DNA of 64,000 bases from Methanoculleus chikugoensis (GCF_019669965.1 NZ_AP019781.1:1364001-1428000); one strand, 5' to 3'; counted from the first letter of the stretch, positions 15,435 to 36,100 are shown. Program-made: numbers and translations. The notes: generated from the sequence alone by a model not told the origin.

Positions 15435-16292
15435 ATGAACGGTCTCGTCCGGAACCTGACGACGCTCGGATTGACGGAGTACGAAGCCCGGGTCTATGCG
15501 GCCCTCGTCGGGATCGGCGAGGGGAGCGCCCGCCAGGTCCACGAAGCGAGCGGGGTTCCCCGCCCGAGGGTGTATGACATTGCCGAAGGGCTTGCCGCAC
15601 GGGGTTTCATCACGGTCCGGCGGGGGAACCCCTATCTCTACATCCCGGCCGAACCCGCCGTCGTCATCCGCCACCTGAAGAGCGCGGCCGATGCCGCGGC
15701 GACGGCGGCGGTGCAGGACCTGGAGGCCCTCTCGCTTGACGCCCGGTCGAAGAACTCGCCGATCTGGTACGTGCAGGGGGAGTGGAGCATCCGGCGCCAC
15801 GCGGAGTCGCTTGCCGCGGGCGTCACCCGCGACCTCGCGGTCGTCTGCCTCGACTACGGCGAGATCGGTGAGTTCGCCCGGCTGATCGCCGATGCATCGA
15901 GAGACCATCCGGTGAGCGTCCTCCTCCCGAACGGGAAGCGCGGGATCACAAAGCCGCTCGGAGACGCATCGCTCTACGCCCCGAAACCCTTCTGCACCTT
16001 CTTTCAGGAGAACGTCTTTGAGAAGGTCTACTGCGCCCCGCTCTCGGTGGACGGGGCGGCGTTTCTGCTCGAGTACATCTTCATCGCCGACGACCGGGTC
16101 TGCATGATCGTCTACCGGGAGGACGGAGTGCGTAACGCCGTCGTGATCACCCTCCCGTTCATCACCTGCGTCCAGCGGCAGTTCGTCAACAGGATGATCG
16201 CGACTGCGGAGCGGATCGAGGGGCCGGGAGGAAGCGGGGGAGGTTCTGTACCATCCCGGGTGACAGGCCAAAAAGAGGATTGTGGTGCTTAG
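15435..16292 (+). CDS. TrmB-family transcriptional regulator
   Basis: 285 residues. The N-terminal winged helix (LTTLGLTEYEARVYAALVGIG, then VPRPRVYDIAEGLAARGFI) is the TrmB DNA-binding domain. The rest is a ligand- or partner-binding region with an alpha/beta appearance (IWYVQGEWSIRRHAESL). The frame is open upstream, but ATG 15435 matches the family start. It overlaps the convergent cooS stop by four bases. That closeness suggests, without proof, that it controls cooS or the divergent DUF2115 operon. Confidence 0.87.
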   Translation: MNGLVRNLTTLGLTEYEARVYAALVGIGEGSARQVHEASGVPRPRVYDIAEGLAARGFITVRRGNPYLYIPAEPAVVIRHLKSAADAAATAAVQDLEALSLDARSKNSPIWYVQGEWSIRRHAESLAAGVTRDLAVVCLDYGEIGEFARLIADASRDHPVSVLLPNGKRGITKPLGDASLYAPKPFCTFFQENVFEKVYCAPLSVDGAAFLLEYIFIADDRVCMIVYREDGVRNAVVITLPFITCVQRQFVNRMIATAERIEGPGGSGGGSVPSRVTGQKEDCGA

Positions 16293-18590: not shown

Positions 18591-18743
18591 GAGACGGGGA
18601 TACGGCGCCCCGTCATTTAACCCTGTCTCTCCGGGGAAACCAGGCGAACAATGAGGGTTATTCCCGTGAATCCCGGCTCTCCGGGGCGCAAGTGGCGGCC
18701 CTGCGAAAAGTATATAGCACTCGCGCCCGTCCCCCCGCCCCGC

Positions 18744-19523
18744 ATGACTGGATTGGCGAGACTCCTGATCCTCACCCTGGTGATAGGGTGTGTGGCTCTC
18801 TTCTCCGGGGCGGTCGCCCAGGAGTATGGGGGCGGCCAGACCCCGACTGCGGCCGCGGCCGGGAACGAGACCAATGCGACAAACGTCACGATCACGTCGC
18901 CGGAGGCGAATGCCAGCGTCGCCGCCGGGAACGTCACGGTGAGCGTGAACGTCACGAACTTCACACTGGTTGCGCCGACCGGGCAGCCGAACGTGCCGGG
19001 CGAGGGCCACCTGCACTACTACCTGGATGCCGTGGTCCCGACGAACGCAAGCGCGCCTGCTATCCCCAAGACCGGCGGCTACGTCATCTCCACGAACCTC
19101 TCCCACACCTGGGAGAACGTGACGCCGGGGGCGCACAACTTCTCGGTACAGGCGGTCAACAACGACCACACCCCGCTCATCCCGCTCGTCTTTGACACGG
19201 TCAACGTCACCGTCGGCGGGAACGCAACCGGGAACGCGACGGTGGTGAACCTCACCGCGGAGAACACCGCCTTCAATACGAGCACGATCACGGTGCCTGC
19301 GGGAGCGAACGTGACCGTGCACTTCGTGAACAAGGACGACGGCATCTCCCACAACTTCGCGGTCTACGACAGCAATCTCCGTTCCAGATCCATCTTTGTG
19401 GGTGACATCATCACCGGGCCTGCCGAGACGAACTACACCTTCACGGCACCGTCCGAACCCGGGACCTACTACTTCCAGTGCGATGTTCACCCGTCGATGA
19501 ACGGTAATTTTATCGTACAATGA
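18744..19523 (+). CDS. Secreted two-domain protein with C-terminal amicyanin-like cupredoxin
   Basis: 259 residues: a signal peptide (residues 1-26), an Asn/Thr-rich linker, a domain with GEGHLHYYLDAVVP (about 45-155) and a cupredoxin (about 165-259). The first domain is nearly the same as residues 228-333 of the 844-residue protein at 10132. The copper ligands are readable as His in SHNFAVYD, then Cys, His and Met in CDVHPSM. The short C-x2-H-x2-M loop resembles amicyanin. It is probably extracellular electron transfer or copper binding. It lies 229 bp before the membrane-protein/heme operon on the same strand. Confidence 0.87.
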   Translation: MTGLARLLILTLVIGCVALFSGAVAQEYGGGQTPTAAAAGNETNATNVTITSPEANASVAAGNVTVSVNVTNFTLVAPTGQPNVPGEGHLHYYLDAVVPTNASAPAIPKTGGYVISTNLSHTWENVTPGAHNFSVQAVNNDHTPLIPLVFDTVNVTVGGNATGNATVVNLTAENTAFNTSTITVPAGANVTVHFVNKDDGISHNFAVYDSNLRSRSIFVGDIITGPAETNYTFTAPSEPGTYYFQCDVHPSMNGNFIVQ

Positions 19524-19752
19524 TCAGGAACAGACATTGAAGGCAAAGGGAACGGGCAACCCCGTATCCCCTTCTTCCCTTATCTCCTTGTTACAGCCGG
19601 GGCCATATGGGCCGGGCACGGTGGGAACCCCCGGGTAAGTTCATCGATACGCTGCCCGACAGCCTGTGCCTCTGCGATCAGGGGCGCATGCCGCTCTTAT
19701 GCTCCCCTCCGGGATAAAGGTTAATACCCACGACGCAGAGGAGCGGCCCGGT

Positions 19753-20088
19753 ATGGGGGGCATGGGAAAGGAGACGAAGATTGCACGGGTCCTCATCGCC
19801 ATATCGGTGGTCTTCGGGCTCTTTGCCGTTGCGACACTCCTCGCTATCGTCATCGGGGGCCTGCCCGCAAGGCCCGGCATCTTCCCGGCGGGGGCGCTTC
19901 TCCTTGCCGCAGTCAAGACGGCCGGGATCGGGTTTGGGCTTGCGGCATACCGGACGATCGGCCGGGGCGATCTCGCCAGGGCCGGGAGATACGCTCTCGT
20001 TGCAGGCTTCCTCCCGCCGCTCGACCTGATCGCGCTCTTTGCCGGGCTGCTCGTCATCTTCCCGCACGGGGAGGAGGGAGCAGGGTGA
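19753..20088 (+). CDS. Small three-helix membrane protein at head of heme operon
   Basis: 111 residues from ATG 19753 (alternative ATG 19762). It has three hydrophobic segments, beginning with ARVLIAISVVFGLFAVATLL, and a short acidic tail. No family is recognised. Its stop overlaps the ahbD start in a TGATG arrangement, so it is translationally coupled to the heme genes. A role in heme or precursor handling is a guess from position alone. Confidence 0.65.
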   Translation: MGGMGKETKIARVLIAISVVFGLFAVATLLAIVIGGLPARPGIFPAGALLLAAVKTAGIGFGLAAYRTIGRGDLARAGRYALVAGFLPPLDLIALFAGLLVIFPHGEEGAG

Positions 20089-21179
20089 TGGAGAGGGGTA
20101 TGAACGGCGGCAGCGGACCCCGCATCGTCTCCTGGAACGTCACGTCCCGGTGTACCCTCGCCTGCGCCCACTGCTCCATCGATGCGAGCAGAGACGGGTC
20201 TCCGGGGGACCTCGACACCGCCGCGGGGATGGCCCTGATCGACCAGATCGCCGCCGTCGGCCGGCCGATCCTGATCCTCAGCGGGGGCGAACCGCTCCTC
20301 CGCCCCGATATCTTCGATCTTGCCGGCTACGCTGCCGGGCGCGGGCTTCGGGTCGCCATGGGCACGAGCGGCGTCCTCGTCACCGACGCCGTCGCGGGCC
20401 GGATACGGGATGCCGGCATCCGGAAGGTGGCGGTCAGCATCGACTCCACGGACCCGGGGGTTCATGACGCCTTCCGGGGCGTCGATGGCGCCTGGGAGCA
20501 GGCGGTCAACGGCATCCGCGCTCTCCGGAGAGCGGGCGTCCCCGTCCAGATCAACGCCTCGATCGGCGGACCCGATGCCGGGGAGGTCGACGGGATCGTC
20601 GCGTTCGGGAAGAGTCTCGGCGTCCGCGATTACCAGTTCTTCTTCCTGGTCCCGACGGGCCGGGGAAAAGACCTTGCCGATATCCCGCCGGAGTCCTCTG
20701 AGGGAGCGATCGGGCGTATCCTCGCGCACGCCCGCGATCCGGGGCTCTCGGTTCGGCCGACCTGCGCCCCGCAGTTCGTCCGGGTGGCCGCCCGGATGGG
20801 GCTTGACCCTGCACTGTGGGGGAGGGGGTGCATCGCCGGCACCGCGTATTGCCGGATCACCCCGGCCGGGGACGTGACGCCCTGCCCGTACCTCCCCCTC
20901 CCGGTCGGGAGCGTCCGGGAGGAGGCGTTCGGGGAAATATGGCGCGGTTCCCCCATCCTTGCCGCGCTCCGCGACCCCGACCGCCTGGGAGGGAAGTGCG
21001 GGCGGTGCGGGTATCGCCGGACCTGTGGCGGGTGCCGTGCCCGGGCCTACGGTGTCAGGCGGCGGCGCGAAGATTCCTGCGGGGGAGCGGTGCGCTCCTC
21101 CGGACCGGGCGGCGATATCCTGGCGGAAGACCCCTGCTGCCCCTACGAGCCGGGGCAGGGAGAGATGAAGCATGACTGA
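20088..21179 (+). CDS. ahbD: Radical SAM heme synthase AhbD
   Basis: Predicted Fe-coproporphyrin III decarboxylase making heme b, the last step of the siroheme-dependent route. The 363-residue protein has the radical SAM motif CTLACAHC, the SAM-binding LSGGEPLLRPDIFDL, SIDSTDPGVHDAFRGV and VPTGRGKDLAD. It ends with a SPASM-like cysteine cluster (CGRCGYRRTCGGCRARAYG). The GRGKDLAD and C-terminal patterns fit AhbD rather than AhbC. ATG 20088 is coupled to the upstream membrane gene; the stop overlaps ahbA by eight bases. Confidence 0.85.
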   Translation: MERGMNGGSGPRIVSWNVTSRCTLACAHCSIDASRDGSPGDLDTAAGMALIDQIAAVGRPILILSGGEPLLRPDIFDLAGYAAGRGLRVAMGTSGVLVTDAVAGRIRDAGIRKVAVSIDSTDPGVHDAFRGVDGAWEQAVNGIRALRRAGVPVQINASIGGPDAGEVDGIVAFGKSLGVRDYQFFFLVPTGRGKDLADIPPESSEGAIGRILAHARDPGLSVRPTCAPQFVRVAARMGLDPALWGRGCIAGTAYCRITPAGDVTPCPYLPLPVGSVREEAFGEIWRGSPILAALRDPDRLGGKCGRCGYRRTCGGCRARAYGVRRRREDSCGGAVRSSGPGGDILAEDPCCPYEPGQGEMKHD

Positions 21180-21666
21180 CCGGGACTTGGATACCCTTGA
21201 TCGGCAACTTCTCGAAGCACTGCAGGACGACTTTCCCCTGGCCCCGCGGCCGTGGCGCGAGATCGGGGACCGCGTCGGTCTACCGGAGACCGAGGTGCTC
21301 CGGCGGGTGCGCCGGCTCGCCGACGAGGGCATCGTCCTGGCCATATCGCCGGTCCTCGAGTCGGCGCGGATCGGCCTTCCGGCCTCCACGCTCATCGGCA
21401 TGCGGGTGCCGCCGGACCGGGTGGACGAGTGTGCGTCGGTCGTCAACCGGGAGCCCGGGGTCTCGCACAACTACCTCCGGGACCACGACTACAACCTCTG
21501 GTTCACGCTCGCGGCCGGCAACGATGCGGCCCTCCGCAGGACAGTGGGGGGGCTTGCGGCCCGGGCGGGCGTCTCCTCGCACGATCTCCTGGACCTGCCT
21601 TCGGTGCGGCGATTCAAGATCGGTGTCCGGTTCCGCTTCCTTCCCGACGGAGAGGAGGGGACATGA
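21172..21666 (+). CDS. ahbA: Siroheme decarboxylase subunit AhbA
   Basis: A 164-residue protein with an Lrp/AsnC-like winged helix (LDTLDRQLLEALQDDFPLAP) and ligand-binding fold. It acts with AhbB to decarboxylate siroheme to 12,18-didecarboxysiroheme. The AhbA type is suggested by SHNYLRDHDYNLWFTLAA and the C-terminal RRFKIGVRFRF. Despite resembling regulators, its place between ahbD and ahbB makes the enzymatic role much more likely. It overlaps both neighbours. Confidence 0.87.
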   Translation: MTDRDLDTLDRQLLEALQDDFPLAPRPWREIGDRVGLPETEVLRRVRRLADEGIVLAISPVLESARIGLPASTLIGMRVPPDRVDECASVVNREPGVSHNYLRDHDYNLWFTLAAGNDAALRRTVGGLAARAGVSSHDLLDLPSVRRFKIGVRFRFLPDGEEGT

Positions 21667-22151
21667 ACGATCGTGACCGTGCGCTCCTGCTCAGGCTGCA
21701 GGATGGCGTCCCGCTCGTCAGCGAGCCGTATCAGGCGATCGCGGAGGACCTCGGCATGACGGAGGCGGAGGTGATTGCCCGGATCGGGACTCTCCTCTCC
21801 CGGGGCGTCGTCCGGCGGTTCGCGGTGCGGCTCGACCACCGGAAGGCCGGTATCCTGGTCAACGCGATGGTCGCGTGGCGGGTGCCGCCCGGGAACGTGG
21901 CGCGGGCGGCGGAGATCATGGCCCGGTTCCCGGAGGTGACGCACTGCTACGAGCGTGCCGTTATCCCCGGCAGGTGGGAGTACAACCTCTTTGTCGTCCT
22001 GCACGGCAGGCGTCGCGATGAGGTCGACCGCGACATCGCCCGGCTCTCTCAAGCGGCAGGCATCGACGACTACACTGTCCTCGTCAGCACCCGGGAACTG
22101 AAACGCGCGCCCCCGGGGCTCGCGCTCCTCCTGCAGGAGGCGGTCCGGTGA
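21663..22151 (+). CDS. ahbB: Siroheme decarboxylase subunit AhbB
   Basis: 162 residues from ATG 21663, overlapping the ahbA stop (ATGA). It has the winged-helix N-terminus RDRALLLRLQDGVPLVSEPY and the AhbB-type stretch THCYERAVIPGRWEYNLFVV. The His-Cys-Tyr region, together with AhbA, is thought to hold siroheme. It ends with YTVLVSTRELKR. The open frame continues far upstream of 21663, but that part is out of register with the homology. It forms the decarboxylase with AhbA. Confidence 0.87.
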   Translation: MNDRDRALLLRLQDGVPLVSEPYQAIAEDLGMTEAEVIARIGTLLSRGVVRRFAVRLDHRKAGILVNAMVAWRVPPGNVARAAEIMARFPEVTHCYERAVIPGRWEYNLFVVLHGRRRDEVDRDIARLSQAAGIDDYTVLVSTRELKRAPPGLALLLQEAVR

Positions 22152-23302
22152 TCCGGTTCACGCGCCTCGTGCACGGCGAAGGCCCGGTCAGCGGCCGTGC
22201 GGCATCGCAGAGCGCCCTTGCGCTTGCGGAGAGCAGGTCCGGGCCGGTGGTCTTCTGGAACGTCACCTCCCGGTGCAACCTCGCCTGCACGCACTGCTAC
22301 CTCCGATCAGGGCCCGGCCGGAGGCGGGAGGACGAGCTGACGACGGACGAGGCGACGGCGCTCATCGACGACCTGGCCCGGGCAGGCGTCCCGCTCCTCC
22401 TCTTCTCCGGCGGGGAGCCGCTGGTGCGGGAGGACTTCTGGACCCTCGCGGCCCACGCTCGCCGACGCGGCCTCCCTGCGGTCCTGAGCACGAACGGGAC
22501 CCTCATCACCCCGGCGGTCGCTCGAAGGCTCCGGGATGCCGGGATCGGGTATGCCGGGATATCCCTCGACGGGGCGACGGCGGCGACCCATGACGCGTTC
22601 CGGGGAGTGCCGGGGAGTTTCGACCGTTCGGTGCAGGCGCTGCAGAACTGCATCGATGCGGGCCTCCGGTGCGGCGTCCGGTTCACGGTCACGAAGAGGA
22701 ACCACAACGAACTGGGCGACCTGATCGCGCTTGCCCGGTCGATCGGGGTGCACCGGTTCTGCGTCTACTGGCTCGTCCCGACCGGGCGGGGAGGGGACGT
22801 CCACGCCGACCTGCAGGTCGCGCCCGGGGAGGTGCGGGCGGTCCTCGACCGGATCTACCATGAGACACTCCGGACCGATCCCGCGACGATGGAGTTCCTG
22901 ACCGTCGATGCTCCCCAGGACGGCGCCTGCCTGCTTGCGAGGCTGGAAGCCGATGCACATCCGGCATACGACCGGGTATACCGCCTCCTTACCCGCACGG
23001 CCGGGTGCAGCGCCGGGAGGCGGGTGGCGAATATCGCCCCTTCCGGGAACGTCTACCCCTGCCAATTCGCGCAGTTTGAGGAATTTTTGGCGGGCAACGT
23101 GCGGAACCGGCCGTTTGGCGAGATCTGGAACGATCCGGAGAACCCGGTGCTCGCGGCGTTCCGGGCGGACGGGACACGAACCGGAAGTCCATGCAGCACC
23201 TGCGGCCGGCGGGAGGTCTGCGGCACGGGGTGCAGGGTCCGTGCCTACATCCGGAGCGGCGATCTCAACGGCGGCGACCCGCTCTGCCTCCGGCACGGGT
23301 GA
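22148..23302 (+). CDS. ahbC: Radical SAM 12,18-didecarboxysiroheme deacetylase AhbC
   Basis: Predicted to remove the two acetate side chains of didecarboxysiroheme, giving Fe-coproporphyrin III. The 384 residues begin at GTG 22148, overlapping the ahbB stop (GTGA). The motifs are CNLACTHCY, LLFSGGEPLVREDFW, GLPAVLSTNGTLITP, GISLDGATAATHDAFRG and YWLVPTGRGGD, with a C-terminal CSTCGRREVCGTGCRVRAY cluster. The LSTNGTLITP and VYWLV patterns fit AhbC. It is the last gene of ahbDABC, followed closely by the copper lipoprotein gene. Confidence 0.87.
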   Translation: MIRFTRLVHGEGPVSGRAASQSALALAESRSGPVVFWNVTSRCNLACTHCYLRSGPGRRREDELTTDEATALIDDLARAGVPLLLFSGGEPLVREDFWTLAAHARRRGLPAVLSTNGTLITPAVARRLRDAGIGYAGISLDGATAATHDAFRGVPGSFDRSVQALQNCIDAGLRCGVRFTVTKRNHNELGDLIALARSIGVHRFCVYWLVPTGRGGDVHADLQVAPGEVRAVLDRIYHETLRTDPATMEFLTVDAPQDGACLLARLEADAHPAYDRVYRLLTRTAGCSAGRRVANIAPSGNVYPCQFAQFEEFLAGNVRNRPFGEIWNDPENPVLAAFRADGTRTGSPCSTCGRREVCGTGCRVRAYIRSGDLNGGDPLCLRHG

Positions 23303-23986: not shown

Positions 23987-23994
23987 GTTTATAT
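23987..23994 (+). promoter_or_regulatory. TATA box of the cytochrome bd-like operon
   Basis: gtttatat sits 53-60 bases upstream of ATG 24047. An ATG at 23993 overlaps this box, which argues that translation begins at 24047 instead. Confidence 0.55.
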
Positions 23995-24046
23995 GTCCGG
24001 CTCCCCATGCCCGGGCCGGGGGGGGACGAGAACGCAGGCAGGTGGA

Positions 24047-25663
24047 ATGCCGCCGGCATCCGGCGAGTACGATACTCGCGGCGATATCTGGAAGATCGCC
24101 GGGATCCTGGTCGCGCTTGCGCTCTTCATCATCGTCCTCTACGGTTACGTCATACCCCTGCAGGGCGGGCTCATATCCTCGACGGCGATACGTTCCAGCG
24201 ACCTTTCGGGGGCGGAGCCGCAGTTCCAGGAGCAGATGCCCATCCAGGAGGTCGACCTCGGGGCTTCCGGCCGGTCGATCTTCATCGCGTTCGTGATGCT
24301 CACCCACATCCTCTTTGCGAACCTGCACCTCGGGGGCGCCTGGGTGCTCCTCTCGCTCGTCATCCTCTTTCTCGCCTCCCGGAAAGAGCGCTACAGCCGT
24401 CTCGGGAAGTCGGTCGCGCTCTTCAACGTCATCCTCTTCTCGGCCGGGGCGACGCTCGCGGCGACCGGGGTCTTGTTCTTCATCGCGCTCTACCCGACGT
24501 TCGCCACGCAGGGATTTCACATCTACTGGTGGCCGCTCCTCGTTGAGGCGATCCTCTTCGGGGTCGAGATCTTCTTCGTCTACACCCTCTGGTTCACCTG
24601 GGCCCGGATCGGGGCGGCCTGGCACGTCCTCCTCGCCGTCGGCTACCCGGTCTCGATCTACCTGCAGACCCTCGCCATCGACACCTTCGTATCGGGAATG
24701 CTGACGCCGGGCGCGAAGACCATCACCTGGGGGGCGCCCGGCCTTCTCGGCATGCCCTGGGCTGAGTACCTGCAGTGGTGGTTCAACCCCACGCTCTGGC
24801 CGCTCCAGTCCCACCGGGTCGCCGCCGCAATCTCCTTCTTCGGTTTCCTGCTCGCGTTCCTCGCTATGCTCCACTTCCACGACCGGACCGATCCGCCGTC
24901 GAAGAAGTACTGGGACTGGGTGGGTTCGTTCGGCATCCTCTGGGGGCTGCTCGGCCTCATCGCCCAGCCGCTCCTCGGCCTGTGGTATATGTACACCATA
25001 TTCACCCACCAGAACCAGGCCTTCACCAACATCATGACCGGACCGCGGGCGTGGGAGATGCTCATGATGGTCGGCCTGCTCTCGCTCCTCATCGTCACCG
25101 TCTCGGTCTACTTCGTCGAGCGGCGGGAGCGTCTCCTGGTCCGGCTCGGCCGGCACGACATCAGAACCCTCTTTCGGGCGTTCGCCCTCATCGCCGGGGT
25201 GGCGGGGCTCGTCCTCGTCCAGCCGGCATGGCTCGGGGGGATCATGGAGCACGACGCCGGGACCTGGCTCAATCCGATCGGGATCATGTACTACAAGCAC
25301 ATCGCCCTCCTCGTCTTGATTGCCATCGGGGCGATCATCGTCGGCATCGACCTCCTGGCCCTCCGCGGGCGCCGGGACGAGGAGTGGGGCAACCTCTCCC
25401 GGGCGTCCCGCATGGCGGCGCTCATCGCCGGGGCGCTCGGCACCTGGATCGTCATCGTTATGGGGTATGTCCGGGAATCGGCGCGCTCGCCGTGGTTGTT
25501 CTATCAGATCGTCCCCGTGCCCGGGGAGCAGACCTACCCGACGCCGGTGCCGGCCTACCAGATCTTCGTGCTCTGGCTGATCATCCTCGGGCTGGTCTTC
25601 GCGATCTTCTGGTTCACATCCCGGGTGACATCCTATCACCCGGAGCGGGAGGAAGAGGTATGA
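24047..25663 (+). CDS. Cytochrome bd oxidase subunit I homologue (CydA-like)
   Basis: A 538-residue membrane protein with about 12 hydrophobic segments. It matches CydA at key points, in E. coli numbering. THILFANLHLG has H87 at the heme d ligand H19. E174 is at E107 (channel glutamate), with E167 near E99. SHRVAAA has H256 at the b558 ligand H186. GYVRESARSPW has E477 at the b595 ligand E445, with W of the GRQPW motif kept. Spacings 87 and 82 compare with 88 and 79 in E. coli. The b558 Met is ambiguous (M341 or M414). No long hydrophilic Q-loop is seen; extra helices occupy that region. The stop overlaps a 40-residue gene. Confidence 0.8.
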   Translation: MPPASGEYDTRGDIWKIAGILVALALFIIVLYGYVIPLQGGLISSTAIRSSDLSGAEPQFQEQMPIQEVDLGASGRSIFIAFVMLTHILFANLHLGGAWVLLSLVILFLASRKERYSRLGKSVALFNVILFSAGATLAATGVLFFIALYPTFATQGFHIYWWPLLVEAILFGVEIFFVYTLWFTWARIGAAWHVLLAVGYPVSIYLQTLAIDTFVSGMLTPGAKTITWGAPGLLGMPWAEYLQWWFNPTLWPLQSHRVAAAISFFGFLLAFLAMLHFHDRTDPPSKKYWDWVGSFGILWGLLGLIAQPLLGLWYMYTIFTHQNQAFTNIMTGPRAWEMLMMVGLLSLLIVTVSVYFVERRERLLVRLGRHDIRTLFRAFALIAGVAGLVLVQPAWLGGIMEHDAGTWLNPIGIMYYKHIALLVLIAIGAIIVGIDLLALRGRRDEEWGNLSRASRMAALIAGALGTWIVIVMGYVRESARSPWLFYQIVPVPGEQTYPTPVPAYQIFVLWLIILGLVFAIFWFTSRVTSYHPEREEEV

Positions 25664-25782
25664 GCCGGAGACGGGGCCGGGCGCTGATCTACGTCATGTG
25701 GGTCGCGATCGCGGTCTACATCGGGGTCGCGATCTACGTCTTCTGGCACTTCGGGTTCACGAAACTTCCCCCGCCGTTTTAG
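25660..25782 (+). CDS. 40-residue single-helix protein between the two CydA-like genes
   Basis: A basic N-terminus (MSRRRGRALIYVMW) leads into one transmembrane helix and a short FTKLPPPF tail. The start overlaps the upstream stop (ATGA), so the genes are translationally coupled. Single-helix proteins of 30-40 residues (CydX, CydS) stabilise bacterial cytochrome bd. The same role is suggested by size and position, but no sequence match is claimed. It is followed after 13 bp by the second CydA-like gene behind a GGAGG-type ribosome-binding site. Confidence 0.72.
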   Translation: MSRRRGRALIYVMWVAIAVYIGVAIYVFWHFGFTKLPPPF

Positions 25783-25795
25783 AGGAGGTACGGGA

Positions 25796-27421
25796 ATGGT
25801 TACACGGGAAACAAGAACGGCGGAAGAGGGGTCGGGGAGAAGACTGCGCCTCATATCCGCGATCATCGTGGCGATCGTAGCCTACCTCATCTTTCTTGCG
25901 GTCGTCATCGTCCCGCTCCAGGGCGGGACGATACCCTCGACAACCATCCTTGCGAACAATCTCAGCGAGAGCACCGCAGACTACGCCACGTCCGGCATAC
26001 CCATCCAGAGCGTCGGGGATATCAGCCGGTCCGCCGTCATCGCGTTTACCATGCTGATCCACGTCGTCTTTGCGAACCTGCACGTCGGGGGCGCCTGGGT
26101 GATCGCGGTCACGGCGCTCCTCTACTTCCGATACCGGCGCATGCGCTACAGGAACCTGGCCCGGTCGCTCACGCTCTTTGTCCTCATCCTCTTCTCGGCG
26201 GGGTCGACGTTTGCGGCGGGGGGGATGATGGCCTTTATCGCGCTCTTCCCGGACCTCTCCATGAACGTCTTCCACCTCTACTGGTGGCCGCTCTTTGCCT
26301 ACTTCATCCTCTATGGGGTCATCATCCTCCTGCTCTTCACCTTCTGGTTCGCCTGGGACCGGATCCGGCCCGGCGTGCACCTCGCGCTCGGGTTCGGCTA
26401 CGCGGTCAGCGTCTTTGTCCAGACCGTCACCATCGATACCCTCGCCGCCGGGATGCTGACGCCGGGCGTGAAGTCGTTTACCTTCACCGAAGCAGGGCTG
26501 CTCCCGATGACGCTTGACCAGGCGATGGCGCTCTGGTTCAACCCGACCCTCTGGGAACTCACCTTCCACCGGGTCGCCGCCGCAATCGCCTTCTTCGGGT
26601 TCCTGATCACGACCCTTGCGACCGTCCACTACATCGACCAGAAAGACTTCGCCGCAAAGAAGCAGTGGGACTGGGTGGCTGCATACGGGATCGCCTGGGG
26701 GCTCGCGGGGCTGATCATGCAGCCGATCCTCGGGCAGCTGTACATGACCGCAATCCAGGAGAACGCGCCCTCCGCCTTCACGATGATCATGCACGGCCCC
26801 CGGGCCTGGGAGATGCTCATGATGGTGACGCTTCTTGCCGGGCTATTTTTGACCATCGGGACCTACTTCCTCACCCGCCGAGACCAGCTCCTTTCCCGGC
26901 CGGAGAACCGCACCATCCGGACGATCTTCAAGGGATTCCTGGTCATGACCGCCGTCGCCGGGTTCATCCTCGTCCAGCCCGCCTGGCTCGGCACGCTCTT
27001 CATCGACGACCCCGGGGCCTGGATCAACCCGATCGGGGGAATGCCGCTGAAATACGTCGCCCTCTTTGTTATGGCGGCGATCGGTGCTGCGATCGTCATG
27101 CTCGACGTCATCGTCCTGACGAGCGAGGAGAAGGAAGGGCAGTGGGGCTACCTCACCCGGGGTTCGCTCCTTGCCGCCTTCACGGCCGGTATCCTCGGGA
27201 CGGCGATCGTGAACGTGATGGGGTTCGTGCGAGAGTCGGCACGCGCACCCTGGACGTTCTACCAGATCATCCCCGTCCCGGGCGGCCAGGCCTACGCGAC
27301 CCCCCTCCCTCTGCCGGTTATCGCCGGGGTCTGGGCGATCGTGCTCGTGCTCTCGTGGGTGGTCTTCTGGTACGTCGCGAAGGTGACGGCGTACCACCCG
27401 GCGGACGAAGACTCCGTCTGA
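25796..27421 (+). CDS. Second cytochrome bd subunit I homologue (CydA'-like)
   Basis: A 541-residue paralogue of the preceding CydA-like protein, collinear along its whole length. It keeps IHVVFANLHVG (H89), FHRVAAA (H258), GPRAWEMLMM and GFVRESARAPW (E480). The helix with the two glutamates in the first protein has lost both: VEAILFGVE is replaced by AYFILYGVI. So it keeps putative heme-ligand residues but not the channel glutamates. That fits a heme-binding, CydB-replacing partner rather than an active subunit, as in the archaeal CydAA' arrangement. No CydB gene is present nearby. Both paralogues end in a VT-x-YHP motif before an acidic tail. Confidence 0.8.
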   Translation: MVTRETRTAEEGSGRRLRLISAIIVAIVAYLIFLAVVIVPLQGGTIPSTTILANNLSESTADYATSGIPIQSVGDISRSAVIAFTMLIHVVFANLHVGGAWVIAVTALLYFRYRRMRYRNLARSLTLFVLILFSAGSTFAAGGMMAFIALFPDLSMNVFHLYWWPLFAYFILYGVIILLLFTFWFAWDRIRPGVHLALGFGYAVSVFVQTVTIDTLAAGMLTPGVKSFTFTEAGLLPMTLDQAMALWFNPTLWELTFHRVAAAIAFFGFLITTLATVHYIDQKDFAAKKQWDWVAAYGIAWGLAGLIMQPILGQLYMTAIQENAPSAFTMIMHGPRAWEMLMMVTLLAGLFLTIGTYFLTRRDQLLSRPENRTIRTIFKGFLVMTAVAGFILVQPAWLGTLFIDDPGAWINPIGGMPLKYVALFVMAAIGAAIVMLDVIVLTSEEKEGQWGYLTRGSLLAAFTAGILGTAIVNVMGFVRESARAPWTFYQIIPVPGGQAYATPLPLPVIAGVWAIVLVLSWVVFWYVAKVTAYHPADEDSV

Positions 27422-27545: not shown

Positions 27546-29822
27546 ATGACAAAAGTTACCCTTGTCATAGCATCCCTCCTCCTGGTTCTCGCGCTCGTTG
27601 CGGGTGCGGGGGCGCAGGTGGTGGGATCGAGCAATGTCAGCGGTACCAACGAGAGTTCAAACCAGACGACAGGAAACGCAACGGACCTCACGAACGCCGG
27701 ATCCCCGCTTGATGCGGCATTCGAGAACAACGCATCCCATACGAACCTGACGCCGATTCCGAGTTTTGCGGCCAACATCGGCCTTGAACTCATCGCAGGG
27801 AACTTCACCTCACCCATGATGGTCGCATCGCCTGACGACGGGACCGGGCGGCTCTTCGTCGTGGACCAGATCGGTCTCGTGAAGATCGTCGATCCGAACG
27901 GTACCGTGCTTCCCGAGCCGTTCCTGGATCTCCGGGACAAACTCGTCGGCCTCAGCCCGACCTACGACGAGCGCGGCCTGCTCTCCATCGCGTTCCACCC
28001 CGATTTCAAGACCAACGGTAAGGTCTACGCGTTCTACAGCGCACCCTTGAGACCGGAAGCTCCCGAGGGATGGAGTTGCACGAACCACATCTCTGAGTTC
28101 CAGGTCGATCCCGAAAACCCGAACACGGTGAACATGACCTCCGAGAAGGTCCTGATGTACATCGACAAGCCCTACCAGAACCACAACGGCGGACAGCTCG
28201 CCTTCAGTCCCGCCGACGGCTATCTCTACATATCCCTCGGTGACGGCGGGAAGGCGAACGACGTCGGGAACGGGCATACCCCCGGTATCGGGAACGCCCA
28301 GGATCTCACGAAGATCTACGGCAAGATTCTCCGGATTGACGTGGACAGTACCGCCACCGGGGGCATGCCGCAGCCGACCATGACCGCGGCGGCGAACCAG
28401 ACCGGGAACGCGAGCGTCAACCGGACGGAAAACCCGCCCGAACCGACGTGGACGACGTTTGCCGGCAGCCTCTACGGCATACCGTCCGACAACCCGTTCG
28501 TGGGGACCCAGCCTGAGATCCTCGACACCTACGCCTACACGGCGGTTCCGGCCGAGATCTATGCTTACGGGTTCCGGAACCCCGCCTACATGGCCTTTGA
28601 CTCCGGCGGCAACAACACGCTCTTTGTCGCCGATGCGGGGCAGAACCTCTTTGAGGAGGTGGACGTCGTCCTGAACGGCGGGAACTACGGCTGGCACATC
28701 CGCGAGGGCACGCACTGCTTCGACCCGAACGCCACCACGGCCCCCGGTGCGTCCTGTAATATCACCGGGCTCCAGGGCGAGCCCCTGATCGGCCCCATCT
28801 TCGAGGGCGGCCATGACCTCGGCGTCGTCGTCGTCGGCGGCAACGTCTACCGCGGGACGGCCGATGTCGGGCTCCAGGGCAGGTACCTCTTCGGCTACTG
28901 GAGCGACAGCCGGACTGTAGGGAACGGCACCCTTCTCGCCGCGACACCCCCGACGGGATGGGCCGAGGGGGCGCTGCCGCAGACTGCCGCGAGCCTGACG
29001 CCCGAAGAGAACGCCATGTGGGATGCCCAGATGGTGAACATCACCGCCCGGAACAACGAGACCCTGGGCGCGTTCCTGCGCGGGTTCGGCGAGGACACCA
29101 GCCAGGATATGTATGTGCTGACGAACGACGTGGGAGGCCCTGACAACGCCACCAGCACCGGCAAACTCTGGAAGATCGTGCCGCCCACCGCCGTCACTCC
29201 GGCCCCGACGACGATGACGCCCGCGGTCGCGCATACCCCGGCACGGAACCAGACCCAGAACATGACCCGGAACATGACCCAGAACATGACGCAGAACCAG
29301 ACCGGCGCCATGACCGGGGGACAGGGGATGGGAGCGGGTGCAACCCTCCCCTTCTCCCTCTCCTTGCCGGATCCCGCCGGGAAGATCATGGAGGTCCTTT
29401 TATCGACCGAGACCAGCATCCCCCTTGAGGAGAGCCCCGCGTTCGGGAACTTCACGCTGTTCACGGGCCTCCTCCAGTCGACGGGCGTTGCCGCGAGGCT
29501 TGAGGGTCCCGGACCGTATACGGTGTTCGCCCCGACCGACGCTGCGTTCGACAAGATGGACCCCGGCACCCGCGAGTCGGTCCTGAACGGCTCCGCGAAC
29601 AGCACGGAGATCGTGCTCTACCATATCGTAAACGGCTCCTACACGCTCGATGGTCTCCGAAACGCCTCGACGCTCCGGACCCTGCAGGGCGGGAACCTTA
29701 CCGTGAACGCTACCGGCCCGGCCGTCATGGTGAACAACGCCACGGTCGCAATCCCCGAACTTCCGGCCGACAACGGTGTTATCCAGGGCATTGACACCGT
29801 CCTGCTGCCGTCCGGGACCTGA
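27546..29822 (+). CDS. Secreted glucose/sorbosone dehydrogenase-like propeller fused to fasciclin domain
   Basis: 758 residues with a signal peptide (1-23). Residues about 75-540 form a GSDH-type beta-propeller: RLFVVDQIGLVKIV, DERGLLSIAFHPDF, NHNGGQLAF, YLYISLGDGG, GKILRIDV, EIYAYGFRNPAYMAFD and FVADAGQNLFEEVD. A linker rich in NMTQNMTQ-type sequons follows. A FAS1 domain (about 625-758) ends the protein: GPYTVFAPTDAAFDKM, VLYHIVNGSYTL, NGVIQGIDTVLLP. The propeller family usually binds PQQ or calcium and oxidises sugars, but PQQ use in a methanogen is doubtful. The third FAS1 protein in the window. Confidence 0.88.
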   Translation: MTKVTLVIASLLLVLALVAGAGAQVVGSSNVSGTNESSNQTTGNATDLTNAGSPLDAAFENNASHTNLTPIPSFAANIGLELIAGNFTSPMMVASPDDGTGRLFVVDQIGLVKIVDPNGTVLPEPFLDLRDKLVGLSPTYDERGLLSIAFHPDFKTNGKVYAFYSAPLRPEAPEGWSCTNHISEFQVDPENPNTVNMTSEKVLMYIDKPYQNHNGGQLAFSPADGYLYISLGDGGKANDVGNGHTPGIGNAQDLTKIYGKILRIDVDSTATGGMPQPTMTAAANQTGNASVNRTENPPEPTWTTFAGSLYGIPSDNPFVGTQPEILDTYAYTAVPAEIYAYGFRNPAYMAFDSGGNNTLFVADAGQNLFEEVDVVLNGGNYGWHIREGTHCFDPNATTAPGASCNITGLQGEPLIGPIFEGGHDLGVVVVGGNVYRGTADVGLQGRYLFGYWSDSRTVGNGTLLAATPPTGWAEGALPQTAASLTPEENAMWDAQMVNITARNNETLGAFLRGFGEDTSQDMYVLTNDVGGPDNATSTGKLWKIVPPTAVTPAPTTMTPAVAHTPARNQTQNMTRNMTQNMTQNQTGAMTGGQGMGAGATLPFSLSLPDPAGKIMEVLLSTETSIPLEESPAFGNFTLFTGLLQSTGVAARLEGPGPYTVFAPTDAAFDKMDPGTRESVLNGSANSTEIVLYHIVNGSYTLDGLRNASTLRTLQGGNLTVNATGPAVMVNNATVAIPELPADNGVIQGIDTVLLPSGT

Positions 29823-31317: not shown

Positions 31318-32256
31318 ATGGCTGTCTCCCTGCGTGACGTGACGAAACGGTTCGGCTCCGTCCGGGCGCTTGATAGGGTCACGCTCGACGTGGGGGAGGG
31401 AGAGATCCTCGGCCTCCTCGGCCCCAACGGGTCGGGGAAGTCGACCCTGTTGAAAGTCGTCGCCTGCCTGATCTCTCCCGACGAAGGGACCGTCACCCTC
31501 CCGGCGGCCGGGCGGGCGATGATGCGCCGCACCGGGATGCTCTTTGACCATACCGCCCACTGGGAGACGCTCACCGGCTACGAGAACGCCCGGTTCTTTG
31601 CCCGCTCCTACGGCATGGACCCTTCGGCGGCGCATGACCGGCTCGAAGACCTGTTCTCGCGCTTCGGGCTCCGGGAGCGGCGGGACGACCCGGTCTCTAC
31701 CTACTCCTACGGGATGCGGCGGAAACTCGGCCTGATCGAGGCCCTGGCGCACGAGCCCTCCCTCATTCTGCTGGACGAGCCGTCGATCGGCCTAGACTAC
31801 CGGGCGAGGATCACCCTTGCCGGGCTGCTCCGCACGGCAGCCCGGCGGGGGGCTGCGGTCGTCTTCTCCACGAACGACGTGAGCGAAGCGGCAGGTCTTG
31901 CCGACCGGGTTGCTCTCTTCGACCGGGGCAGGCTGCTCGTCTCGGGGGAACCGGCCGCTCTCGTCCGGTCGCTCGGTGCGAAGGTGACGATCGACCTCCG
32001 GCTGACGGCGCCGGTCGCGCTCCAGCCGCTCGGCGAGGTCCCCGGCGTCGAGAGCGTGGGCGCGGAGGAGCGGGAGGACGGATTTTGCGTGACGGTGATA
32101 GCCGCGCCGGACGAGTCCAGCCCGTCGTTTCTCCTCGCCCGGATCGTCCACGCGGTGGCGAGAGAGGGCGGGATGGTCGTGGGCGTCGATCTGCGGGCCC
32201 CGGGGCTCCCGGATCTCTTTCTCGCGTATACGGGGGAGGGGGCAGATGCACCCTGA
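31318..32256 (+). CDS. ABC transporter ATP-binding protein (CcmA-like)
   Basis: 312 residues. Walker A is GPNGSGKST, the signature is YSYGMRRKLG and Walker B is LILLDEP. The switch position after Walker B reads FSTNDVSEA, with Asn where most ABC ATPases have His, which is unusual. The ~90 residues after the ATPase core form a small accessory domain. It overlaps the permease gene by 11 bases. Order and size resemble heme-exporter CcmAB or ABC-2 drug/lipid exporters; the substrate is unproven. Confidence 0.85.
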   Translation: MAVSLRDVTKRFGSVRALDRVTLDVGEGEILGLLGPNGSGKSTLLKVVACLISPDEGTVTLPAAGRAMMRRTGMLFDHTAHWETLTGYENARFFARSYGMDPSAAHDRLEDLFSRFGLRERRDDPVSTYSYGMRRKLGLIEALAHEPSLILLDEPSIGLDYRARITLAGLLRTAARRGAAVVFSTNDVSEAAGLADRVALFDRGRLLVSGEPAALVRSLGAKVTIDLRLTAPVALQPLGEVPGVESVGAEEREDGFCVTVIAAPDESSPSFLLARIVHAVAREGGMVVGVDLRAPGLPDLFLAYTGEGADAP

Positions 32257-32911
32257 CTCGTTCTTCCAGAAGGAGCTCCTCGAAGACCTCCGGAACCGCC
32301 GGGGGCTCATCCTCAAGTTCGCCCTGCCGGCGGCGCTCCTGCTTCCCCTCATCCTCGCCGACGTGCCCGCATCCCTGCAGGCTGCCGGCATCACGGTCGC
32401 CGTCGTCTTCTCCGGGGTCTTCGGGTCGTCGATCGGGCTCGTCCGCATCCGCGAGAGCGGCATGCTGGACCGGATGGCCCTGCTGCCCGTCTCTCCCCGC
32501 CGGCTGACCGCCGGATACGTCCTCGCGAACGCCCTCCTCGACGGGACGCAGGTCGCGATCCCCCTCGCCGCCTTCCTGCTCGTCCACCCGCCGGTCCCGG
32601 CGGGGATCCTGTATGCGGTTGTATCGTTCGCCTCCGCCGTGGTTGCGGCAAACGCTCTCGGCGTCCTGGTGGCGGTCGTCCCGGGCTCATCGGGCGAGGG
32701 GCACCTTTATGCGGTCGTCACGGTCATGGCCGCCATCGCCCTCTCCGGGCTCGTCGCGCCCGCCCCGTATACGCAGGTTTTTCTCCCCTTCTGGTACCTC
32801 TACGCGGCCCTCCTCGCCGCCCCGGAGGCATTCGCCCTCGCCCCGGTCCTCGCCGCTCTCCTCCTTGGGTCCGTGCTCGCGATCTCCCCCGGGCTGTTCC
32901 GGTCGCGATAA
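32246..32911 (+). CDS. ABC-2/CcmB-like permease
   Basis: 221 residues with about six hydrophobic segments. It opens with FFQKELLEDLRNRRGLILKF, the amphipathic start typical of CcmB and ABC-2 permeases. It also carries ESGMLDRMALLPVSPRRLTA, the conserved cytoplasmic loop after helix 2. With the preceding ATPase it forms a minimal exporter. A heme-export role is possible given the heme genes 8 kb upstream, but no CcmC/E/F or CxxCH protein is seen here. Confidence 0.8.
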   Translation: MHPDSFFQKELLEDLRNRRGLILKFALPAALLLPLILADVPASLQAAGITVAVVFSGVFGSSIGLVRIRESGMLDRMALLPVSPRRLTAGYVLANALLDGTQVAIPLAAFLLVHPPVPAGILYAVVSFASAVVAANALGVLVAVVPGSSGEGHLYAVVTVMAAIALSGLVAPAPYTQVFLPFWYLYAALLAAPEAFALAPVLAALLLGSVLAISPGLFRSR

Positions 32912-33117: not shown

Positions 33118-36100
33118 TTAGTGTCTCCTCCTCGCCCAGAGGAGGAAGGCCAGCGGTGCAAGGAAGGGCGCGTAGACGAGCGGTGCCGCGGGTGTCGTCG
33201 TCGCCGCGACGGTCGGCCCGGTCGTCATCGTTTCTGTCCCTTCGGGCGTCGCGGTAGCCTCTGTCGTGACGTTCGTCTCCGCCGTCATGGTCGTGTTCTC
33301 CGGCATCGCGGCGATGGCGAAGGTGGAGAACCCCGGAGTGGTCGCCCGGAAGCGGTACGATCCGCTCTCTTCACCGAGGACCTCGGTCTCCAGGATCTGC
33401 CAGCCCCCGTTGACGTAACGCATGAGCCTGACGTCCTCCGGGAGCATGTCGTGCTCCTCAAGCCACTTCGCCGGGATGGTGAAGGTCAAGGTCGCGCCGC
33501 CGATCTGGTTCGGGTTCGCCCATGATACGGCGATCTCGACGTACTCGTAGGTGCTGCCGCCGGGAGGCGCCGCCAGGTTGGGGCACCCCGTCTCCTTCAC
33601 GGTCATCAGCAGCCGCGGGATGTTGTCGGCCGCCGTGATAGCGATGCTGCCGACCGACGTGACGTCGATACCCGAGAACGTGTGCGTCTCGCCGCTCTTT
33701 AGATCCTCACAGATCCCTGCATAGTGGGTGCGGGGGCTCCAGCCGCCATCGTTTGCCGACCCGCCGTTGTTCCCGGGATTGGGCGTGGGATCGGGCGTGG
33801 GATTGGGCGTGGGATCGGGTGTGGGGTCGGTCGTGGGCGCCGCCGTGATGGTGACCGTGGCCGTTCCTTCAACGCCGCCGGCACACGCCGTCACGTCCGT
33901 GGAGCCCTGTGAGAAGGCTGCGAAGAGGCCCGAGCGGTCGATCGTGCCGATATCGTCGTCGGAGCACGACCATCTGACCCTGACCCAGTCCATCTCGATC
34001 TCGCACTGGTCGAACACCGTGGCCGTGAACTCCCGGGTTCCTCCGGCCGTGAGCGTGGCGTCAGGCGGGGCGACCTCGATGCAGGCCGGAACCGGGAGCG
34101 AGGGCTCGACGGTCACGCAGGCGGAGCCGGAGACCCCGTTCGCCGATGCGGTGAGAGTCACTTCCCCTTCCGCAAGAGCGGTGAAGGCGCCGCTGCAGAG
34201 ATCGATCTCGCCGACGCACGGGTCGCTGCTCTCCCAATCCACATCGACGTCCATGGGGAGACCGTACTGGTCGAACCCTCTCGCAGTGAGCGTCAGGCAG
34301 TTCCCGGCCGGGATGCAGAAGTCGGACGGGCTGACCTCGATCCGCGCAAGTTCAGGCGCCGTCGACCGGACGGTCACCGTCGCGGTTCCAACCTCGTCGA
34401 CTCCGTCGATTGTTGCGGTGACGGACGTGGTTCCCCCGCAGAGCGCGGTGAAGAGGCCGCTGGACTCGTCGATGGTCCCGACACCCTCGTCTTCTTCGCA
34501 TGACCACCGGGTAATCATGGAACCTGCGTTGTCCTGCAGGTCATGCACGGTCGTGAACTGCCACTTGTCCCCGCGGTTCAGGATGATCGCCGACGGGGAG
34601 ACCACGACACCTGCGGATTCCTCGGTGACCTCTATCTCCGCCGTCCCAGCGACCCCTTCGGCCGATGCGGTTACGGTCGCCGTGCCCGCGGCGTGGGCCG
34701 TGAAGAACCCGGTGTCGTCGACTTCGCCGACGGTCTCAGCGCAGCAGCCCCACTCGATTGTAACGTCGGGTATCTCGCAGCCGTCCTGGTCGAGGGCGGT
34801 TGCGGTGAACGCCGCGGTGTCGCCGGCGGCGAGCGTTATCGCGGCCGGGGTGACGACGATGGACGTCACGACCGGGTCGTTGCAGTTCACGGTGACGGTT
34901 GCGGTTCCTTCAGCACCGTCTCCGCATGCGGTGATGGTCGCCGTGCCGCCGTCACGGGCGGTGAAGACGCCGCACTCATCGATGGTGCCGACGCACGGAT
35001 CGCTGCTCTCCCAGGTGATCTCGGCGTCCTCGACGATGTTGCCGAACCGGTCGAACGCGACGGCACGGAACTCCAGTTCGTCGCCGGTCTCGAGTTTTGC
35101 CGCCGACGGCACGACCGCGATCTTCGCGAGCGGAGGCTCTTCTTCGCAGACGGTGATGGCTGCTTCCGCAGAGCAGGTGCCTGCCGTTGCGGTTACGGTC
35201 GCGGTTCCCGCGGCAAGGGCGGTGAAGCGTCCTTCCCCGTCGATGGTCCCGACGGCTTCGTCGCTGCAGGCCCAGTCGATCTCACCGGCGGGCATGGCGT
35301 TGCCGTTCTGGTCGTGGCCCGTCACCATGAATCTCTGGATGTCCTCGGCGTCCAGTGTGGCCCGGGGCGGTGTGAGCGTGATACTCGTGAGCACCGGCTC
35401 TTCCGGCCCTACCGGGTCCTTGGCGGTGATGGTGACGGTAGCTTCTCCGGATTTGCCGTCTGCCGACGCAACGATGGTTGCGGTGCCCGCGGCCTTCGCG
35501 GTGAAGACACCGGTACCGTCGATCTCGCCGACGGTCTCATTGCTGCACGACCAGATGACCGCAACGCCGGTCATTGCGCCGCCGAACTGGTCGAGGACGG
35601 TTGCCGAGAACTGCTGTGTGTCGTCGATGGCGAGCGTGGGCGTGGACGGTGTGACCGTGATGCTTCTTGCAACCGGTGCTTCGTCGGTGACGGTGACGGT
35701 AGCTTCTCCGGATTTGCCGTCTGCCGACGCAACGATGGTCGCCGTGCCTGCGACCTTTGCGGTGAAGACGCCGGTACTGTCGATCTCACCGATGGTCTCG
35801 TCATTGCACGACCAGTTGAACTCAACGCCGGTCATTGCGTTGTCATCCTGGTCGTAGGCGGTCGCGTTGAACTGCTTCGTCGCGTTGAGATCAAGTGTGA
35901 ACGTGGACGGGTCGATCGCGATGCGCGTCACGACCGGTACTACCGGTTCGTCGGCGGTGACCGTGACGGTCGTGGTTCCGGGGACGCCTTCGGCGGTCGC
36001 GGTAATGGTCGCGGTGCCTGCGGCGAGAGCGGTGAAGAAGCCGCTGGCATTGTCGATGGTTCCGACGGTTTCGTTGTCGCACGACCAGTTGAATGCAATG

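What the first reader, a model, noticed from the sequence alone, without database searches (positions are those of the whole stretch)
23987..27421. Tandem CydA/CydA'-like oxidase genes with no CydB in a probable methanogen
Two collinear ~540-residue membrane proteins match cytochrome bd subunit I at the heme-ligand positions (H87/H89, H256/H258, E477/E480, W of GRQPW) with E. coli-like spacing in the N-terminal half. No CydB-like gene lies nearby. An archaeal CydAA' arrangement, in which a second CydA homologue replaces CydB, is known in the literature as far as I recall. Finding it coupled to a heme operon in a methanogen believed to lack quinones would define an unusual oxygen reductase, possibly for detoxification.
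Basis: partly seen in the sequence, partly recalled or inferred. Interest (0 to 1): 0.9.

Follow-up and report, generated by a model that had tools for sequence, protein, structure and literature searches.

The report
Quinol-site-less bd oxidase pair in Methanoculleus
[quoted passage not shown] this looks like a copper-protein-fed oxygen scavenger built by pairing two members of a family that elsewhere works as a single gene.

Summary
ORFs 23993-25663 (A) and 25796-27421 (B) match Pfam Cyt_bd_oxida_I above cut-off. Their AlphaFold models hit only cytochrome bd subunit I chains in the PDB at significant E-values. No CydB (PF02322) occurs in the genome. The genus is Methanoculleus, and AhbA/AhbB heme genes sit upstream.

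This is a CydA/CydA'-like pair, but not the archaeal quinol-type CydAA': the quinol residues (E. coli K252, E257) are absent and GRQPW reads ARSPW/ARAPW. A and B are not sister duplicates (AU p 2e-7). They belong to a family that is a single gene with no CydB in other Methanomicrobiales, Borrarchaeum and a Bacillota genome. All intact singles and A keep H19, E99, E107, H126, H186, E445 and R448. B lost both glutamates yet stays under purifying selection, so it is a subfunctionalised partner.

A conserved ~40-aa single-TM peptide lies between A and B, and after three single genes. A universal-stress-protein/ABC-transporter cassette and cupredoxins recur in several lineages.

Best model: an oxygen reductase fed by blue-copper protein, probably for O2 scavenging. 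Shown: fold, residues, neighbourhood. Inferred: O2 chemistry, donor, heterodimer. OR-N/OR-C membership could not be tested.

The parts
23993..25663 (+). A: CydA-like catalytic subunit, 556 aa (alternative start 24047), extra N-terminal TM helix; keeps E. coli H19, E99, E107, H126, H186, E445, R448, W451 equivalents (H105, E185, E192, H211, H274, E495, R498, W501)
   Evidence: PF01654 51.8 bits; residue mapping; AF2 pTM 0.70, Foldseek hits CydA only; dN/dS 0.23-0.27
25796..27421 (+). B: CydA'-like partner, 541 aa; keeps the heme-ligand positions but has Y and I at the E99/E107 positions; 20 otherwise invariant positions changed
   Evidence: PF01654 61.5 bits; AF2 pTM 0.75, Foldseek hits CydA only; dN/dS 0.13-0.20
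25660..25782 (+). X: 40-aa single-TM peptide, ATGA overlap with A, ribosome-binding sites before X and before B; CydX/CydS-like by position and size only
   Evidence: Conserved in five Methanoculleus genomes; dN below dS in 9 of 10 pairs, though in one of these (0.069 vs 0.073) hardly so; similar peptide directly after the single gene in L021, L023, L051
23338..23919 (+). Cupredoxin lipoprotein (lipobox LAAGC), type-1 copper ligand pattern H...CxxHxxxM intact; proposed electron donor
   Evidence: Cupredoxin_1 46.8 bits, Copper-bind 32.8 bits; nearest solved structure auracyanin A
18651..19523 (+). Second secreted cupredoxin with an N-terminal DUF4399-like domain
   Evidence: Cupredoxin_1 47.5 bits; DUF4399 below cut-off
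19666..20088 (+). Small hypothetical hydrophobic protein
   Evidence: No family match; conserved in relatives
20085..21179 (+). Radical SAM/SPASM protein, AhbD/NirJ2-like
   Evidence: TIGR04055 333 and TIGR04545 314 bits, both below the cut-off of 500
21172..21666 (+). AhbA, siroheme decarboxylase subunit alpha
   Evidence: NF040708 141.8 bits, cut-off 140
21663..22151 (+). AhbB, siroheme decarboxylase subunit beta
   Evidence: NF040707 173 bits, cut-off 125
22148..23302 (+). Radical SAM/SPASM protein, AhbC/NirJ1-like
   Evidence: TIGR04054 311 and TIGR04546 306 bits, below the cut-off of 650
27546..29822 (+). Secreted glucose/sorbosone dehydrogenase-type propeller with C-terminal fasciclin domain
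   Evidence: GSDH 98.8 bits, Fasciclin 116.6 bits
29898..31106 (+). Universal stress protein with C-terminal PCP_red domain; conserved next to the oxidase in single-gene loci
   Evidence: Usp 108 bits, PCP_red 54.5 bits; synteny
31318..32256 (+). ABC transporter ATPase of the conserved cassette
   Evidence: ABC_tran 99 bits; synteny
32246..32911 (+). ABC-2-like permease of the conserved cassette
   Evidence: ABC2_membrane_3 24.3 bits, below the cut-off of 31.6; the Borrarchaeum homologue passes at 48.3; synteny

Best explanation
A, X and B form one membrane oxygen reductase of the cytochrome bd superfamily that does not use quinol. A is the catalytic subunit: it carries the high-spin heme pair at the H19 and E445 positions, the H186 site, and a cytoplasm-side proton path through E185/E192. 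B is a CydA-derived partner that fills the place of CydB; it keeps heme-ligand residues but has lost the proton-path glutamates. X is a small single-helix accessory subunit. Electrons come from the extracytoplasmic side, most likely from the adjacent blue-copper lipoprotein, itself reduced by a secreted propeller dehydrogenase or another extracellular donor. Heme comes from the upstream Ahb genes. The main role is most likely O2 removal at traces of oxygen; any energy gain would be secondary. Shown: homology, predicted fold, residue pattern, operon and its conservation. Inferred: O2 reduction, heterodimer, donor, direction of electron flow, physiological role.
For: Family and fold: PF01654 above cut-off; hhalign 99.2% probability, E 1.6e-19 to a CydA alignment over the N-terminal half; the ten significant Foldseek hits of each model are all bd-oxidase subunit I. 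Catalytic residues H19, E99, E107, H126, H186, E445, R448 kept in A and all intact single-gene relatives. Quinol residues K252/E257 absent throughout; PMC9846854 ties the equivalent Lys/Glu to quinol binding. No CydB in any of 13 genomes searched. B's loss of both glutamates with dN/dS 0.13-0.20, and 20 lost invariant positions against 7 in A, fits a specialised non-catalytic partner. Cupredoxin directly upstream of A in the six Methanoculleus genomes; in G017 fused to a PQQ-type propeller. Cupredoxin-like sequence also beside the single gene in L113 (in broken frames), and a DUF4399/cupredoxin1-type protein beside that in L021. All 11 oxidase-bearing genomes of the order have AhbB over cut-off against 75 of 221 others.
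Against: No experiment and no structure of the complex; AF2 models are moderate (pLDDT 62 and 66) and of monomers. The second heme b558 ligand (M393) could not be aligned with confidence. B retains heme-ligand residues, so it may be catalytic too. Cupredoxin proximity is not proof of donor role; none was found within the windows read around the Borrarchaeum, G348 and G1048 genes. PqqC was not found in the genome, but the control did not ring either, so the dehydrogenase link is weak.
Confidence: 0.58

Rival explanations
1. It is the known archaeal CydAA' quinol oxidase, using a quinone or methanophenazine-like carrier of the methanogen.
For: Two CydA paralogues and no CydB, as in the described CydAA' arrangement; CydA/CydA' loci of that general kind occur in Archaeoglobi and Asgard genomes.
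Against: K252, E257, S140, N148, W441 and the Q-loop are absent in A, B and all singles but mostly present in CydA of Archaeoglobi and Asgard loci; the two groups are separated by a very long branch. Methanomicrobiales are thought to lack methanophenazine (background knowledge, not tested).
Confidence: 0.12
2. A and B are two separate oxidases, each a homodimer like the single-gene relatives, co-transcribed but not one complex.
For: Single-gene relatives with no CydB and no second copy apparently work alone; A and B are not sisters; OWC_0066 carries two unlinked copies.
Against: Tight operon A-X-B with ATGA coupling in five genomes; B has lost E99/E107, which every intact single keeps.
Confidence: 0.2
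3. The complex is a bd-fold heme b protein that does not reduce O2 but peroxide or nitric oxide, or only passes electrons across the membrane.
For: No member of this family has biochemistry behind it; the USP and ABC neighbours suggest stress; canonical bd enzymes also have peroxidase activity (abstract of PMC4899803).
Against: Both high-spin heme ligand positions and the proton-path glutamates are retained in A and in single genes from three phyla, which fits protonated chemistry at a di-heme centre.
Confidence: 0.1

Closest known systems
Canonical cytochrome bd (CydAB, qOR family; E. coli 6rko, Geobacillus 5doq)
   Same: Subunit I fold and the residues H19, E99, E107, H126, H186, E445, R448, W451 in A; a small accessory single-TM peptide by position
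   Different: No CydB, no Q-loop or K252/E257, ARSPW/ARAPW instead of GRQPW, an extra N-terminal TM helix, cupredoxins next door
Archaeal CydAA' (Murali, Gennis and Hemp 2021; paper not held, known here from citations and memory)
   Same: Second CydA paralogue in place of CydB, archaeal host
   Different: Quinol residues absent here; A and B are 50% identical and similar in length, whereas the Archaeoglobi and Asgard second subunits read here are short and divergent; different lineage
OR-N CydAA' of Nitrospirota/Nitrospinota, thought to take electrons from cytochrome c (PMC10839748, PMC12342949)
   Same: bd-like, predicted not to use quinol, two CydA-type subunits, soluble electron carrier proposed
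   Different: Carrier here looks like a cupredoxin; no CXXCH; direct sequence comparison was not possible with the collections at hand

Membership tests
Cytochrome bd superfamily, subunit I (PF01654) | Profile match above the curated cut-off | tested here: met
   51.8 and 61.5 bits against 26.2
Cytochrome bd superfamily, subunit I (PF01654) | bd subunit I fold | tested here: met
   Ten significant Foldseek hits each, all bd subunit I, probability 1.00, though TM-scores are only 0.32-0.46 by query length
Cytochrome bd superfamily, subunit I (PF01654) | High-spin heme ligands (E. coli H19, E445) and b558 ligand H186 | tested here: met
   Conserved in A, B and all intact singles; ligand roles of H19, H186 and M393 from PMC4602095
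Cytochrome bd superfamily, subunit I (PF01654) | Second b558 ligand M393 | tested here: inconclusive
   C-terminal half aligns poorly; the invariant M432 of A is a candidate
Canonical CydAB quinol oxidase (qOR) | CydB partner | tested here: not met
   PF02322 absent from the genome and 12 others
Canonical CydAB quinol oxidase (qOR) | Quinol site: Q-loop with K252 and E257 | tested here: not met
   A and M at these columns in all members, P and M in G1048
Archaeal CydAA' (quinol type) | Two CydA paralogues, no CydB | tested here: met
Archaeal CydAA' (quinol type) | Quinol-binding residues as in Archaeoglobi and Asgard CydA | tested here: not met
OR-N / OR-C bd-like oxidases | Placement in the OR-N or OR-C clades | not testable with these tools
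   No reference sequences of these clades could be fetched; Murali et al. 2021 not held
OR-N / OR-C bd-like oxidases | No quinol site | tested here: met
Alternative heme biosynthesis (AhbABCD) | AhbA and AhbB | tested here: met
   NF040708 and NF040707 above cut-offs
Alternative heme biosynthesis (AhbABCD) | AhbC and AhbD | tested here: inconclusive
   Radical SAM genes in the right place, best scores below equivalog cut-offs

The most novel reading that the evidence does not exclude
A family of bd-type oxidases works from a single CydA-like gene as a homodimer (with a CydX-like peptide in part of the family), fed by soluble carriers rather than quinol. In Methanoculleus two diverged members were paired into a heterodimer in which one subunit lost its proton path, repeating independently the step that is thought to have produced CydB from CydA.
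Probability: 0.4. Interest if true: 0.8.

Novelty: new variant of a known kind. Interest (0 to 1): 0.65.

Why it matters
Hydrogenotrophic Methanomicrobiales are regarded as lacking cytochromes and quinones; two surveys place heme synthesis and bd homologues of methanogens mainly or only in Methanosarcinales (PMC8351635, PMC7618691). An oxygen reductase fed from outside the cell by a copper protein would explain oxygen tolerance in some of them and would break the assumption that bd enzymes in archaea need quinol. The single-gene relatives offer a testable model of the ancestral, CydB-free bd oxidase, and the Methanoculleus pair an independent origin of asymmetry.

Tried and rejected
Sequence search of A in PDB: no match; B: one weak match to Geobacillus CydA. 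tblastn of A in plasmids: none. Idea that A and B are a recent tandem duplication: rejected, AU p 2e-7. Idea that the heme operon exists only for the oxidase: rejected. Fused A-X-B model (reading TGA through): prepared but not run, because the B half had too few rows; B was folded alone instead. PQQ synthesis: PqqC not found, but the control was silent, so no conclusion. Murali et al. 2021 could not be read. The Peptococcaceae UBA2264 copy lacks the H19 helix and is split, so it was not used. Placement of E. coli CydA and G1048 in the trees is unsure because of long branches.

Full report
Observation. The window lies in a 2.62-Mb single-contig genome. Its genus is Methanoculleus: genome G018, given as same genus, contains the contig MPOY01000096 of Methanoculleus sp. 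EBM-46. ORFs A (23993-25663) and B (25796-27421) both match PF01654 over nearly the whole profile and above the curated cut-off and are the only such genes in the genome. CydB (PF02322) is absent here and from 12 further genomes, while the control genomes rang in 10 of 14.

Residues. Aligned with E. coli CydA, A keeps H19, E99, E107, H126, H186, E445, R448 and W451. It lacks R9, S140, N148, K252, E257 and W441. The M393 and R391 region does not align reliably. H19 and H186/M393 are ligands by mutagenesis as cited in PMC4602095; E445 as the other high-spin ligand and E99/E107 as the proton path are established knowledge of bd structures. B keeps the same ligands but has Y and I or V at E99 and E107. 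GRQPW reads ARSPW in A and ARAPW in B. The residues of the quinol site are absent in every member.

Fold. AlphaFold2 models from ten-row alignments reach pTM 0.70 (A) and 0.75 (B), mean pLDDT 62 and 66. The significant Foldseek hits of both are bd-oxidase subunit I only. Both have one extra N-terminal helix before the canonical first helix. A profile comparison with CydA of E. coli, Archaeoglobi and Asgard archaea gives 99.2% probability, over the N-terminal half only. The models are too rough for details of heme pockets.

Distribution. Within the order, 11 of 232 genomes have the family: six Methanoculleus genomes and five from two other families. In named collections it also occurs in Candidatus Borrarchaeum weybense, in Methanomicrobiales archaeon OWC_0066 (two unlinked copies) and as a broken copy in Peptococcaceae UBA2264. 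A divergent Bacillota member, G1048, groups with the family at full support and keeps H19, E99, E107, H186, E445 and R448. Outside Methanoculleus the gene is mostly single: G348 (98% complete, two contigs), Borrarchaeum, G679, G680 and G682 each have one copy. Absence of a second copy is firm only for the more complete genomes.

Phylogeny. A and B do not group together. B is sister to the single genes of G679/G680/G682 and A lies apart from that group; a tree with A and B as one clade is rejected (AU p 2.2e-7). The pair therefore arose by an old duplication with loss in other lineages, or by bringing two diverged copies together. Twenty positions invariant in all singles and in A have changed in B, only seven the other way round. 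dN/dS is 0.23-0.27 for A and 0.13-0.20 for B, so B is not decaying. This pattern fits B becoming a specialised partner of A.

The small peptide X. Between A and B lies a 40-codon gene whose ATG overlaps the stop of A (ATGA), with a ribosome-binding sequence before it and before B. It is a single predicted TM helix, conserved in five Methanoculleus genomes; dN is below dS in nine of ten pairs, in one of them only just (0.069 against 0.073), so codon evidence alone is modest. A peptide of like size and pattern (W...Y...YW..GW) follows the single gene directly in L021, L023 and L051, which is the stronger evidence. It resembles CydX and CydS in size and position; homology to them was not shown.

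Neighbourhood. Upstream are AhbA and AhbB (above cut-off), two radical SAM proteins of AhbC/AhbD type (below cut-off), and two cupredoxins with intact type-1 copper patterns. Downstream are a propeller-fasciclin protein, a universal stress protein with PCP_red domain, and an ABC ATPase with permease. The order oxidase - USP - ABC ATPase - permease recurs in G679, G680 and G682, in Borrarchaeum (with one extra gene) and in Bacillota G1048; G348 has USP, an ABC ATPase and the Ahb genes on the opposite strand. Methanoculleus inserts the propeller gene between B and USP. In G017 the gene directly before A encodes a PQQ-type propeller fused to a cupredoxin. The heme genes are not exclusive to oxidase carriers: AhbB is above cut-off in 86 of 232 genomes, among them all 11 carriers; this association is not corrected for kinship.

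Mechanism. The most likely picture is an oxygen reductase with A catalytic, B in the place of CydB and X as accessory, taking electrons from a blue-copper lipoprotein outside the membrane. Fold, residues, operon structure and conservation are shown. The reaction with O2, the heterodimer, the donor and the role in oxygen removal are inferred. The ABC pair and the USP could serve cofactor handling or stress response; nothing here decides it.

Comparison with known systems. It works like CydAA' in that a CydA paralogue takes the place of CydB, but the quinol features of that type were tested and not met. OR-N enzymes of nitrite oxidisers are the nearest described idea, a bd-like CydAA' thought to use a soluble carrier (PMC10839748, PMC12342949). 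Whether this family falls inside OR-N or OR-C could not be tested because neither the sequences nor the defining paper were available. The verdict is a new variant of a known kind.

Noticed in passing
16289-18199 (-); L052 6535-8328; L053 3352-5148: A CooS-type carbon monoxide dehydrogenase (TIGR01702, 697 bits) lies 5.8 kb from the oxidase; prismane/CODH-type genes are also immediate neighbours of CydA in two Archaeoglobi-like loci.
   Followed up: partly
L119-L128 and 86 of 232 Methanomicrobiales genomes: AhbB above its cut-off is common in Methanomicrobiales, which does not fit published statements that heme synthesis in methanogens is largely confined to Methanosarcinales.
   Followed up: partly
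L014 9608-11340: In Methanoculleus sp. UBA303 the oxidase region is a chimera of the start of A and the rest of B with a frameshift: recombination between paralogues or an assembly error.
   Followed up: no
L027 8827-11640: Peptococcaceae UBA2264 carries a degraded single-gene copy (H19 helix missing, split frame) with transposase genes inserted in the neighbouring stress-protein gene.
   Followed up: no
L022 10653-11339; L027 10336-11031: A conserved 228-231 aa protein without any Pfam match sits between the oxidase and the stress protein in Borrarchaeum and Peptococcaceae, but not in Methanoculleus.
   Followed up: no
L015 3-2670: Methanoculleus sp. EBM-46 has two consecutive glucose/sorbosone dehydrogenase-type genes after the oxidase instead of one.
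   Followed up: no
33118-37602 (-): A 1494-aa probable surface protein with a long series of Ig-like repeats.
   Followed up: no
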